Part shown: positions 13,440 to 26,669 of the stretch, one piece after another
Numbering within the stretch: the stretch's first letter is position 1
Layout: the number at the start of each line of letters is the position of its first letter
Assembly (NCBI GenBank): GCA_958450365.1
Contig: CAUEEP010000920.1
Coordinates: 1,327,501 to 1,391,500, forward strand
From: Mesorhabditis belari
Lineage: Eukaryota; Nematoda; Chromadorea; Rhabditida; Rhabditidae
Reading direction: 5' to 3'
DNA: 64,000 nucleotides
The notes under the pieces: generated by a model
Told to the model about the DNA's origin: nothing
What the model saw: the letters and a program-made list of their open reading frames with translations, nothing else
Database searches by the model: none
Translations under genes and position numbers: made by a program

Positions 13440-16400
13440 TTAGATTAAAGCTTTGAGAACGGTTTTATGTTTAATTCCAACTGATTCTGTTGTCGCAGTT
13501 GGGCCGGCTGATTCTGTTGTAGCCGATGCTGTCGTTCCAACTGATTCTGTTGTAGCAGATGCTGTCGTTCCAGCTGATTCTGTGGTAATAGATCCTGTCG
13601 TTCCAGCTGATTCTGTTGCAATAGATCCTGTCGTTGCCGTCTTTTCTGTTGCAATGGATCCTGTCGTCGCCGTGGTTTCTGTTGCAATAGATCCCGTCGT
13701 TCCCGTGGTTTCTGTTGCAATAGATCCCGTCGTTCCCGTGGTTTCTGTTGCAATAGATCCCGTCGTTCCCGTGGTTTCTGTTGCCATAGATCCTGTCGTT
13801 CCAGCTGATTCTGTTGCAATAGATCCTGTCGTTCCAGCTGATTCTGTTGCAATAGATCCTGTCGTTGCCGTGGTTTCTGTTGCAATAGATCCTGTAGTCG
13901 CCGTGGTTTCTGTTGCAATGGATCCCGTCGTTCCCGTGGTTTCTGTTGCAATAGATCCCGTCGTTCCCGTGGTTTCTGTTGCAATAGATCCCGTCGTTGC
14001 CGTGGTTTCTGTTGCAATAGATCCTGTCGTTCCAGCTGATTCTGTTGCAATAGATCCTGTAGTCGCCGTGGTTTCTGTTGCAATGGATCCCGTCGTTCCC
14101 GTGGTTTCTGTTGCAATAGATCCCGTCGTTGCCGTGGTTTCTGTTGCAATAGATCCCGTCGTTCCCGTGGTTTCTGTTGCAATAGATCCCGTCGTTCCCG
14201 TGGTTTCTGTTGCAATAGATCCCGTCGTTCCCGTGGTTTCTGTTGCAATAGATCCCGTCGTTCCCGTGGTTTCTGTTGCAATAGATCCTGTCGTACCAGC
14301 TGATTCTGTTGCAATAGATCCTGTCGTTCCAGCTGATTCTGTTGCAATAGATCCTGTTGTTACCGTGGTTGCTGTTGCAATAGATCCTGTCGTTCCAGCT
14401 GATTCTGTTGCAATAGATCCTGTCGTTGCCGTGGTTTCTGTTGCAATAGATCCTGTAGTCGCCGTGGTTTCTGTTGCAATGGATCCCGTCGTTCCCGTGG
14501 TTTCTGTTGCAATAGATCCCGTCGTTCCCGTGGTTTCTGTTGCAATAGATCCCGTCGTTGCCGTGGTTTCTGTTGCAATAGATCCTGTCGTTCCAGCTGA
14601 TTCTGTTGCAATAGATCCCGTCGTTGCCGTGGTTTCTGTTGCAATAGATCCTGTCGTTCCCGTGGTTTCTGTTGCAATAGATCCCGTCGTTCCCGTGGTT
14701 TCTGTTGCAATAGATCCCGTCGTTGCCGTGGTTTCTGTTGCAATAGATCCCGTCGTTCCCGTGGTTTCTGTTGCAATAGATCCTGTCGTACCAACTGCTT
14801 CTGTTGCAATAGATCCGGTCGTTCCCGTGGTTTCTGTTGCAATAGATCCCGTCGTTCCCGTGGTTTCTGTTGCAATAGATCCCGTCGTTCCCGTGGTTTC
14901 TGTTGCAATAGATCCTGTCGTACCAGCTGATTCTGTTGCAATAGATCCCGTCGTTCCCGTGGTTGCTGTTGCAATAGATCCTGTCGTTCCAGCTGATTCT
15001 GTTGCAATAGATCCCGTCGTTACCGTGGTTGCTGTTGCAATAGATCCTGTCGTTCCAGCTGATTCTGTTGCAATAGATCCTGTAGTCGCCGTGGTTTCTG
15101 TTGCAATGGATCCCGTCGTTCCCGTGGTTTCTGTTGCAATAGATCCCGTCGTTCCCGTGGTTTCTGTTGCAATAGATCCCGTCGTTGCCGTGGTTTCTGT
15201 TGCAATAGATCCTGTCGTTCCAGCTGATTCTGTTGCAATAGATCCCGTCGTTGCCGTGGTTTCTGTTGCAATAGATCCTGTCGTTCCCGTGGTTGCTGTT
15301 GCAATAGATCCCGTCGTTCCCGTGGTTTCTGTTGCAATAGATCCTGTCGTTCCAGCTGATTCTGTTGCAATAGATCCCGTCGTTACCGTGGTTGCTGTTG
15401 CAATAGATCCTGTCGTTCCAGCTGATTCTGTTGCAATAGATCCCGTCGTTCCCGTGGTTTCTGTTGCAATAGATCCCGTGGTTGCCGTGGTTTCTGTTGC
15501 AATAGATCCCGTCGTTCCCGTGGTTTCTGTTGTAATAGATCCCGTCGTTCCCGTGGTTTCTGTTGCAATAGATCCCGTCGTTGCCGTGGTTTCTGTTGCA
15601 ATAGATCCTGTAGTCGCCGTGGTTTCTGTTGCAATGGATCCCGTCGTTCCCGTGGTTTCTGTTGCAATAGATCCCGTCGTTCCCGTGGTTTCTGTTGCAA
15701 TAGATCCTGTCGTACCAGCTGATTCTGTTGCAATAGATCCCGTCGTTCCCGTGGTTGCTGTTGCAATAGATCCTGTCGTTCCAGCTGATTCTGTTGCAAT
15801 AGATCCCGTCGTTACCGTGGTTGCTGTTGCAATAGATCCTGTCGTTCCAGCTGATTCTGTTGCAATAGATTCTGTAGTCGCCGTGGTTTCTGTTGCAATG
15901 GATCCCGTCGTTCCCGTGGTTTCTGTTGCAATAGATCCCGTCGTTCCCGTGGTTTCTGTTGCAATAGATCCCGTCGTTCCCGTGGTTTCTGTTGCAATAG
16001 ATCCCGTCGTTGCCGTGGTTTCTGTTGCAATAGATCCTGTCGTTCCAGCTGATTCTGTTGCAATAGATCCCGTCGTTGCCGTGGTTTCTGTTGCAATAGA
16101 TCCTGTCGTTCCCGTGGTTTCTGTTGCAATAGATCCCGTCGTTCCCGTGGTTTCTGTTGCAATAGATCCTGTCGTTCCAGCTGATTCTGTTGCAATAGAT
16201 CCCGTCGTTACCGTGGTTGCTGTTGCAATAGATCCTGTCGTTCCAGCTGATTCTGTTGCAATAGATCCCGTCGTTCCCGTGGTTTCTGTTGCAATAGATC
16301 CTGTCGTTCCAGCTGATTCTGTTGCAATAGATCCCGTCGTTCCCGTGGTTTCTGTTGCAATAGATCCCGTGGTTGCCGTGGTTTCTGTTGCAATAGATCC

Positions 16401-25400: not shown

Positions 25401-26669
25401 CAAAAAAAGGCTCACACTCTGGTCTTATCAAATTACGGCTTGGAGCTTAATTTGAGGCGAAATTGTGGGATCGATTGGTTTTGCAATGTCCACCATTACA
25501 ATGACAGTTCGCCCAGGAATTCGTGGATCACAAGGAAAACCTGGGGAAATGGATTTTTGGGTTTATGATTAGCATACCTTTAATTGGTGTGGGATTTGGA
25601 GGTGGTTGTTCAGCAATGATTTGAGCAATAGCATCTGTACTTTCTAAAGAAAACGATTGAGTTGATATTGATTAAATTTGAAAGGCCTGAATGCTCAGTT
25701 TCTCAGAAAATAAGTCAAAAATTGTCTTTACCTAGTTGGGGTCATTTAGACTAGTAATTTAGACTTAAAACTAGGCTTTTTTGCTGAGGGATTTGACCAT
25801 ATTTAAACTAAAAACGAATTTCGATGCCTACCAGCCATTTTCGATGTCCAATTCATTGCTTTGAATATGGAATTTAAAGTTCTTTGATCGACTGGATCAG
25901 CGAATAAAAAAGTTCCATAAAAAATCGTGGTTGTGTTGAATGATCTGAATTGTTTGGGAATGAAACTGTAGTGAATAGTATTGCAAAGATATTTAATACG
26001 TTATCACGTCTTACTGTGCAAGATAATCCGGCCAAACAGCAAGCGGCAGCGGTACAGTCGGCTCAATTTTAAAGCTCATAAACGAATTTTGAGTCGCTGG
26101 TGAGGTCAGAATTTCCGTCACCTAAAATCCATTTGTCTAAAGAAATCTATGAAATAAATCAAATCACATTTTGTTTAAACTTTTCTATAGCTTCTTTGTA
26201 ATCATCGGTTGAGTTGAGATAATATTGGTCATTCCAGGGAAGTCCCGGATCCAGCGAAAAGTAGAGCAACTTTGTATGATTGCTGATTCCAATTGGGCAG
26301 TCTGAGGCTGGGCATTTTATCGGTTTTGAATCACCTAAATGAGTTAAAAGCTTAATTTAAAAGCTTCTCAATGTTTTTTTTACATTTTTTATTTATTTTC
26401 GAGAGCCCAATGCCAAGGAGAATGGCGGCGACTCCAATCAAAATGGCGCTTGCTGTGAGCAGAAGTATGGAAAACTAAACAGAGGTATTGTAGGAAAGAA
26501 TTGATTGATATACAAAATGGTTTAGTAGATCTAGCATATAAGGATATAAGAATGTAATACAGGATACAATAATGTAATCTCTTATTGCTAGATCTCGAAA
26601 TATCAACCATAAGATCTCGAAATGTCAACCATAAGCAAACCCTGAACTTACCCATCTAGCTCGCTCCAT
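13440..26669 (-). CDS. giant type II membrane protein: about seven VWA-like domains plus mucin tail
   Basis: Forty-one exons join in phase from ATG 26667-26669 to TAA 13440, about 2,887 residues. Exon 1 encodes MERARW; exon 2 a signal-anchor helix (FSILLLTASAILIGVAAILL). VWA-like units then follow, with first strands such as TVIVMVDIAKP, DICIVLDTSAD, ADVVLCIDLQ, ADIVIVLDLAN and ADFVFVVDVST; the last also has AFIAYSNEG, SETNLGSALEYL and TFVTFFSAN. The unit in exons 3-5 is the weakest. Metal sites are degenerate in all. Thr/Pro linkers separate some units. The last exon (13440-17698) encodes a Thr/Ser-rich tail dominated by the repeat TTGSIATETTG. An AATAAA (complement of 13405-13410) lies 30 nt past the stop, so I end the gene there. 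A surface or secreted adhesion or glycocalyx role is inferred. Least certain junctions: 18583-18623, 19809-19848 and 20094-20231. Confidence 0.8.
13560..17050 (-). repeat. 33-nt coding minisatellite (11-residue mucin repeat), about 105 copies
   Basis: The unit encodes TTGSIATE followed by a variable triplet (TTG, TTA or SAG), with rarer ATATTV and ATATTG forms. Both edges decay into looser repeats (TTASATTESVG at the C-terminal edge). The unit contains no stop codon in several frames, so long frames appear on both strands; only the minus frame continues from spliced VWA exons. Every second residue or so is Thr or Ser, as in heavily O-glycosylated proteins. Confidence 0.93.
18838..18935. repeat. 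short tandem repeat ACCAGCTGATCCACAA
   Basis: About six imperfect copies of a 15-16 nt unit lie mainly in an intron between VWA exons 34 and 35. No coding role is seen. Confidence 0.75.
19540..19672. repeat. minisatellite AGAGTAGATTAT, intron 32 of the VWA-mucin gene
   Basis: About ten imperfect 13-14 nt units with ACTATAGAGTAG and ATTATAGAGTAG variants. They lie in the 453-nt intron that separates the first and second exons of one VWA unit. Confidence 0.8.
22075..22285. repeat. 22-nt minisatellite GATCAAATGATCTGATCTGTAT
   Basis: About eight near-identical copies, drifting to TCACATGA units at the right end, directly beside the TA-flanked element at 22302-22836. All within one intron of the VWA-mucin gene. 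Confidence 0.85.
22302..22836. mobile_element. TA-flanked MITE, CCGTATTCTC ends
   Basis: Starts CCGTATTCTCCGTAAAAG and ends with the complement CTCTAATAGTAGTGC...GAGAATACGG, with TA on both sides. No coding sequence. The same CCGTAWWT-type end is seen at 27333-27590 and 50581-51089, so these probably share one transposase source. It lies in an intron between VWA units. Confidence 0.8.
23988..24058 (-). pseudogene. tRNA-like sequence in a VWA-mucin intron
   Basis: On the minus strand there is a perfect D-arm (TAGCTCATTGGTAGAGC), an anticodon-loop-like CTGTTAG and a perfect T-arm (GCGGGTTCGAATCCCGC). The acceptor halves GCGATGG and GGTTAAT do not pair and the anticodon stem is poor. The internal promoter boxes look intact, so it could be transcribed, but a working tRNA is unlikely. 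Confidence 0.55.
24430..24737. other. GC-rich insert forming most of a VWA-mucin intron
   Basis: This 300-nt stretch has runs of G or C up to 12 long and GGGGGCAAAA-type motifs, unlike the AT-rich surroundings. It sits in the intron between exons 10 and 11 (24375-24737). Splicing it out restores a continuous VWA frame (IADGFEYDGG). Its origin is unknown. Confidence 0.55.

What the first reader, a model, noticed from the sequence alone, without database searches (positions are those of the whole stretch)
13440..26669. A 41-exon gene joins about seven VWA-like domains to a giant mucin tail behind a signal anchor
The reading frame closes exactly over 41 exons (8,664 nt, divisible by three). The layout is an N-terminal membrane anchor, repeated VWA-like units with degenerate metal sites, Thr/Pro linkers and then about 1,400 residues of Thr/Ser-rich tail. 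I know of nematode VWA proteins with lectin or CUB domains, but not this exact layout.
Basis: partly seen in the sequence, partly recalled or inferred. Interest (0 to 1): 0.8.

Follow-up and report, generated by a model that had tools for sequence, protein, structure and literature searches.

The report
Nematode adhesion-domain protein with mucin tail
This worm gene very probably encodes one large surface-type protein, a row of von Willebrand A adhesion domains followed by a long sugar-bearing tail, and it belongs to a small family of such genes in this worm and a sister species.

Summary
The gene is real. Guided by relatives, I read 41 exons on the minus strand (26669→13440), 8,685 nt, 2,894 residues. 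The two annotated relatives alone support 40 of 41 exons. The genome is inferred to be Mesorhabditis belari. Three co-linear paralogs lie on the same contig, and a M. spiculigera protein has a Thr-rich tract directly after the same VWA unit. So the tail very probably belongs to the VWA gene.

Corrections: five units, not seven, pass Pfam's VWA cut-off; a sixth is probably degenerate VWA and the first block shows no VWA signal. No unit has the DxSxS metal motif. A frame that "closes exactly" is no evidence in itself. The gene looks 3'-truncated: both annotated relatives continue with more VWA domains.

The tail's 33-bp array has 97 and 96 detected units in two assembled haplotypes, in unrelated order, while exons 1-40 differ by 0.27%.

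Best reading: a membrane-anchored surface-matrix protein. The function is inferred; no expression data were available and no structure prediction was run.

The parts
26652..26669 (-). Exon 1, start codon, MERAR(W)
   Evidence: The annotated M. belari paralog (P0002) starts MERARL
26384..26474 (-). Exon 2, hydrophobic N-terminal stretch, probable anchor (FSILLLTASAILIGVAAILLGIGL)
   Evidence: Highest hydropathy in the protein; similar segments begin P0002 and P0003
25594..26272 (-). Block U1 (aa 58-182), conserved in the family, no VWA signal
   Evidence: Pfam and profile comparisons negative
23859..25514 (-). Block U2 (aa 197-406), probably a degenerate VWA
   Evidence: hhalign 68% probability against pooled U3-U7; paralog A U2 gives VWA_2 E=0.0012, below cut-off; this gene's own U2 gives nothing
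23759..23860 (-). Exon 13, Thr/Pro linker
   Evidence: Sequence; Thr/Pro linker in the paralogs at the same place
22016..23699 (-). VWA unit U3 (aa 446-644)
   Evidence: PF00092 E=1.1e-7, above cut-off
21038..21946 (-). VWA unit U4 (aa 668-868), DTSAD in place of DxSxS
   Evidence: PF00092 E=9.5e-12
19849..20707 (-). VWA unit U5 (aa 880-1067)
   Evidence: PF00092 E=4.2e-10
18576..19765 (-). VWA unit U6 (aa 1083-1269)
   Evidence: PF00092 E=5.1e-6
17867..18539 (-). VWA unit U7 (aa 1282-1446)
   Evidence: PF00092 E=3.7e-17; profile of three family members against PDB: collagen VI alpha-3 chain E=3e-52 over 8 stretches, integrin alpha-2 I domain 5e-7
17698..17878 (-). Exon 40, 80-nt intron and the phase-1 junction into exon 41 (KTYTNFINQ)
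   Evidence: Similar junction in phase 1 in paralogs B and C, read from the DNA; Thr-rich tract at the same place in P0003
13440..17698 (-). Exon 41, mucin-like tail; begins with non-repetitive Thr/Ser-rich sequence, ends with the stop at 13440-13442
   Evidence: Only frame of six without an internal stop in both haplotypes
13507..17182 (-). 33-bp (11-residue) coding minisatellite, commonest unit GSIATETTGTT
   Evidence: TRF, 111 copies; 97 units with exact GSIAT
13405..13410 (-). AATAAA, 29 nt after the stop; present in the C548 haplotype too
   Evidence: Sequence

Best explanation
One gene encodes a large extracellular glycoprotein, held to the membrane of an epithelial (or germ-line) cell by an uncleaved N-terminal hydrophobic anchor. 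A short cytoplasmic stub is followed outside the cell by a row of five to six VWA domains that work as metal-independent protein-protein binding modules, as in matrix proteins, and then by an O-glycosylated mucin tail of about 1,400 residues that reaches into the surface coat. The gene is a shortened member of a Mesorhabditis family of VWA-array/mucin proteins: the annotated relatives continue with more VWA domains, whereas here an expanded 33-bp coding minisatellite takes their place. Shown by sequence: one gene by homology, the VWA units, the missing metal motif, different arrays in the two assembled haplotypes. Inferred: anchor topology, O-glycosylation, tissue, binding partners and matrix role.
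For: Gene structure: 40 of 41 exons supported by the two annotated relatives, 41 of 41 with my models of B and C; three co-linear paralogs on the same contig; P0002 and P0003 share anchor, U1, U2 and U3-U7 in order at 36-43% identity. Tail continuity: B has AYTAFITQPITTIETKITTT and C a similar stretch after the U7 block, in the same phase 1; P0003 has a 176-residue Thr/Ser-rich tract at this place; the first Met of exon 41 is its residue 44 and no hydrophobic leader follows it. Extracellular character: 21 N-glycosylation sequons in aa 38-1482 and Thr/Pro linkers. Domains: five PF00092 units above cut-off; the U7 profile hits collagen VI alpha-3 and integrin I domains. VWA membrane proteins (MUP-4, MUA-3) and mucins are described in nematode apical matrix (PMC11304992, passages).
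Against: No transcript, protein or localisation data were available. The stretch after the hydrophobic segment is rich in Lys (SKINKKCDSK), so the positive-inside rule (recalled) does not favour the proposed topology. In the C548 haplotype exon 40 has one more A in a run of As; if real, that allele would stop 51 codons past the exon-40 end and lose the tail. One donor is GC in that haplotype. The tail has almost no Pro, unlike classical PTS mucins. Two of the three protein searches found no relative in the family at all, for length reasons I explain below.
Confidence: 0.55

Rival explanations
1. The same protein, but secreted: the hydrophobic stretch is a cleaved signal peptide or the protein is shed, and it becomes a free component of mucus, precuticle, egg coat or copulatory plug.
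For: No second hydrophobic stretch of membrane strength; Lys-rich flank after the first one; [quoted passage not shown]
Against: The hydrophobic core is about 24 residues (sequence), longer than usual signal peptides (recalled), and similarly long ones begin P0002 and P0003.
Confidence: 0.3
2. The gene is a decaying, truncated paralog whose tail array is drifting without function.
For: It lacks the VWA units that follow the U7 block in P0002 and P0003; one-base insertion and GC donor in haplotype C548; array order unrelated between haplotypes; an isolated anchor-like exon lies just downstream.
Against: An open 41-exon model in the window copy; Thr frame open over 4.2 kb in both haplotypes; AATAAA 29 nt after the stop in both; between haplotypes exons 1-40 show 5 synonymous and 7 non-synonymous differences, dN/dS about 0.4, too few to be firm.
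Confidence: 0.12
3. Two genes: a VWA gene ending near 17779 and a separate mucin gene in 13440-17698.
For: Only the lack of transcript data; in C548 the frame would break at this junction if the extra A is real.
Against: Similar joining stretch and phase in B and C, one annotated M. spiculigera protein with the tract in place, no early start or leader in exon 41.
Confidence: 0.03

Closest known systems
P0002, annotated 'VWFA domain-containing protein' of Mesorhabditis belari (paralog A), and P0003 of M. spiculigera
   Same: Anchor, U1, U2, U3-U7 in the same order; Thr-rich tracts; P0003 has its tract directly after the U7 block
   Different: Both are longer (3,674 and 3,487 aa, annotated partial), have about two extra VWA-like units between U2 and U3 (VWA_2 match in each), and VWA after a Thr-rich tract (3.7e-12 and 2.3e-5, above cut-off); P0002 keeps DxSxS twice and P0003 once, this gene never. 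In P0002 the tract lies near the C-terminus, not after U7
Collagen VI alpha-3 (VWA array)
   Same: Row of VWA modules; best sequence match in the PDB
   Different: Pfam found only VWA and VWA_2 in the first 1,330 aa of an early model, no collagen; anchor and mucin tail instead
MUP-4 / MUA-3 of C. elegans (matrilin-related; PMC11304992, passages)
   Same: Large transmembrane VWA-class proteins at the epithelium-matrix boundary
   Different: Those carry EGF domains (recalled); none was found here, and the anchor here is N-terminal
Nematode mucins DPY-6, LET-653, PLG-1 (PMC11304992, passages)
   Same: Mucin-like domain, in DPY-6 and LET-653 joined to other matrix domains
   Different: The partners named there are a cysteine cradle and a ZP domain, not VWA arrays
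clec-160 type proteins (PMC6054721, passages)
   Same: Nematode VWA protein
   Different: One VWA plus a C-type lectin domain, 408 aa; no mucin tail mentioned in the passages

Membership tests
VWA domain proteins (PF00092) | VWA profile above the curated cut-off | tested here: met
   5 of 7 blocks above 23.8 bits: U3-U7; U1 and U2 not
VWA domain proteins (PF00092) | Intact MIDAS first segment DxSxS | tested here: not met
   0 motifs after a hydrophobic strand in aa 1-1480; not required for the fold (recalled)
VWA domain proteins (PF00092) | Rossmann-like fold by structure prediction | not tested
Mucin-like proteins | Long Ser/Thr-rich tandem repeats | tested here: met
   1,412 residues, 727 Ser+Thr, 97 units with exact GSIAT; Pro only 0.4%
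Mucin-like proteins | Dense O-glycosylation | not testable with these tools
   Sequence potential only
Mesorhabditis VWA-array/mucin family (this cluster) | Co-linear anchor-U1-U2-U3..U7 core | tested here: met
Mesorhabditis VWA-array/mucin family (this cluster) | VWA domain(s) after a Thr-rich tract | tested here: not met
   Stop at 13440; no VWA hit by tblastn or family HMM in window 1-13440. Among relatives met in P0002 and P0003, weak in my C model (0.0054, below cut-off), not found in my B model, so not a strict criterion
Collagen VI / matrilin | Collagen or EGF partner domains | tested here: not met
   Only VWA and VWA_2 found by Pfam in the first 1,330 aa of an early model; the final model was scanned as seven blocks
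Signal-anchored membrane protein | Uncleaved N-terminal hydrophobic anchor | tested here: inconclusive
   Long hydrophobic core, mixed flanking charge

The most novel reading that the evidence does not exclude
The tail is a functional, hypervariable coding minisatellite on a surface protein: in a lineage where females keep both haplotypes together (heterozygosity is maintained by cosegregation, PMC10456839), the two alleles have turned over their mucin arrays completely while the adhesive domains stayed nearly identical, giving each animal two different surface coats. A gene of a VWA family would thus have been turned into a diversifying mucin by loss of its 3' VWA domains.
Probability: 0.2. 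Interest if true: 0.6.

Novelty: new variant of a known kind. Interest (0 to 1): 0.42.

Why it matters
It documents a domain combination, VWA array plus mucin, in a small gene cluster of Mesorhabditis; three searches of the protein collection turned up family members in two Mesorhabditis species only (each scored about 8,000 pre-selected candidates). Because longer relatives are at hand, the gain of a giant mucin tail and the loss of later VWA domains can be followed step by step, and the array difference between haplotypes offers a direct test of how mucin repeats evolve in an asexual animal.

Tried and rejected
Frame closure and GT-AG ends as evidence: rejected, both are built into my dynamic programming. 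dN/dS on the array: rejected, its alignment is not reliable (7% apparent divergence). Third-position variation in the array (entropy 1.81, 1.76, 4.45 by Thr-frame codon position) looked like coding evidence, but by my reading the plus-strand open frame has the same bases as its third positions, so I do not use it. One search's homology bonus did not work (0 bonus codons); its models were superseded. Profile comparison of U1 and U2 with U7 alone was negative. PDB search with the U2 profile gave only matches of E about 0.2, treated as chance. I had thought that all relatives have VWA after a Thr-rich tract; Pfam bears this out for P0002 and P0003 only, and the text was mended accordingly. No annotated protein for this very gene was found in these three searches. 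Structure prediction was not run (see membership test). Literature: eight searches listed no paper on this family in the held library; of listed papers I saw titles and starts of abstracts, and passages of six: PMC9865600, PMC11304992, PMC10456839, PMC6054721, PMC11555361, PMC9894435.
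Full report
The organism. The window is G000:C696:1327501-1391500 in a 207.6-Mb assembly of 714 contigs; the nematode SL1 sequence (recalled) occurs 430 times exactly, its reversed control 0 times. Contig C548 is 3,964,252 bases, the same as the longest contig given for P0002, an 'unnamed protein product, partial [Mesorhabditis belari]', and P0002 matches my rough model of paralog A in this region in five main pieces of 73-95% identity. I infer M. belari.

The gene. With splice scores, codon use and tblastn support from paralogs, then junctions checked by hand, the minus strand gives 41 exons, 26669 to 13440, CDS 8,685 nt, 2,894 aa, 24 of 40 introns of 49 nt or less. GT-AG ends and closure are built in. 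The check is the comparison with relatives: 41 of 41 exons have at least one relative at 25% identity or more over 60% of their length, 28 of 41 have all four, and 40 of 41 (all but exon 30) are supported by the two annotated proteins alone; for exon 41 only the first 24 residues were compared. The annotated paralog starts MERARL, this gene MERARW. AATAAA lies 29 nt after the stop.

The cluster. tblastn of the VWA part against 264 kb around the window finds three co-linear plus-strand paralogs: A (matches from about C696:1261 kb), B (from about 1427 kb) and C (from about 1452 kb), aligned over the core at 42-44% identity to this gene after trimming. This gene is inverted relative to them. A whole-genome search with unit U4 lists 21 matches, all on C696 and C548 (only best candidates are scored, so a lower bound); those on C548 mirror those on C696, so I read C548 as the other haplotype of the same place. 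M. belari is reported to be heterozygous genome-wide, about 1.3% (PMC10456839, passages). Other VWA matches lie on further contigs (20 in all listed) and were not studied.

The tail belongs to the gene. In B and C a stretch AYTAFITQ / AYTLFVTQ that runs into a Thr-rich end follows the U7 block in phase 1, as KTYTNFINQVVITTTT does here. In M. spiculigera P0003 one annotated protein runs from the U7 block through a 176-residue Thr/Ser-rich tract into another VWA (E=2.3e-5). Paralog A has only a short Thr/Pro linker there and its longer tract near the C-terminus. In my B model the long tract comes later, after a further weak VWA-like unit (0.0034, below cut-off). Exon 41 has no early start or leader of its own, and only the Thr frame is free of internal stops in both haplotypes.

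Domains. Scanned separately, U3-U7 pass Pfam's VWA cut-off (E from 5.1e-6 to 3.7e-17); U1 and U2 do not. U2 of paralog A gives VWA_2 at 0.0012 and U2 of P0003 gives VWA at 0.026, both below cut-off, and the U2 profile matches pooled U3-U7 with 68% probability, where left-out true units give 95-98.5%; against single units it is negative. I call it a probable degenerate VWA. U1 gives nothing. The closest solved chain for the U7 profile is collagen VI alpha-3 (3e-52, summed over 8 stretches), then the integrin alpha-2 I domain (5e-7). No unit keeps DxSxS; P0002 keeps it in two units and P0003 in one, all in places this gene lacks.

Truncation. The family HMM finds further VWA stretches after the U7 block in P0002 (6, aa 1942-3667) and P0003 (3, aa 2080-2565). 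None is found here in window 1-13440. After the Thr-rich tract Pfam supports VWA in P0002 and P0003, weakly in my C model, not in my B model.

Haplotypes. C548 differs at 12 of 4,427 alignment columns of exons 1-40 and at 21 of 4,629 intron columns, with 110 intron gap positions. The array exon is 66 bp shorter there, 97 against 96 detected units, and the unit order is hardly closer than shuffled order (edit distance 49; shuffled mean 53.1, minimum 48 of 200). An assembly error in the repeat cannot be excluded. C548 also has a GC donor after exon 8 and one extra A at the end of exon 40; taken literally, that allele would stop 51 codons beyond exon 40. A miscounted homopolymer is an easy alternative.

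How it most likely works. Anchored or secreted VWA rows bind other matrix proteins, and the glycosylated tail makes a hydrated brush. Nematode apical matrices contain VWA-class membrane proteins and mucins (PMC11304992, passages). Without DxSxS, metal-dependent ligand binding as in integrins is unlikely; this step is inference. An isolated anchor-like exon just downstream (about 12950-13049) hints that a rearrangement removed the 3' part.

Verdict. It is a new variant of a known kind, of moderate interest.

Noticed in passing
58598-59161: About 94 copies of the nematode telomere repeat TTAGGC inside the contig, in a species with reported chromatin diminution (PMC11555361, PMC9894435, passages).
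   Followed up: no
about 12950-13049, minus strand: An anchor-exon-like stretch (VIVFLIVGVLFIAAGAAMLGVGIHKIHQ) after an AG, with none of six MERA-type start patterns nearby: possible relic of another family member.
   Followed up: partly
23993-24049, minus strand: tRNA-like sequence (Rfam, 32.2 bits) inside intron 12; ARAGORN does not call it.
   Followed up: no
10908-11218, plus strand: Isolated fragment of large-subunit rRNA, 113 bits.
   Followed up: no
1-191 and just left of the window: Plus-strand Thr-rich repeat, possibly the tract of another family member.
   Followed up: no
22069-22272: 22-bp tandem array, 98% matches, inside intron 19.
   Followed up: no
5892-6263, plus strand: Open frame that looks like a family-2 glycosyltransferase; recognised from memory, no search made.
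   Followed up: no
L010:7445-7810: Mariner-like helix-turn-helix sequence beside paralog B; recognised from memory.
   Followed up: no
L034/L035 (C548), end of exon 40 and donor after exon 8: One extra A and a GC donor in the other haplotype.
   Followed up: partly
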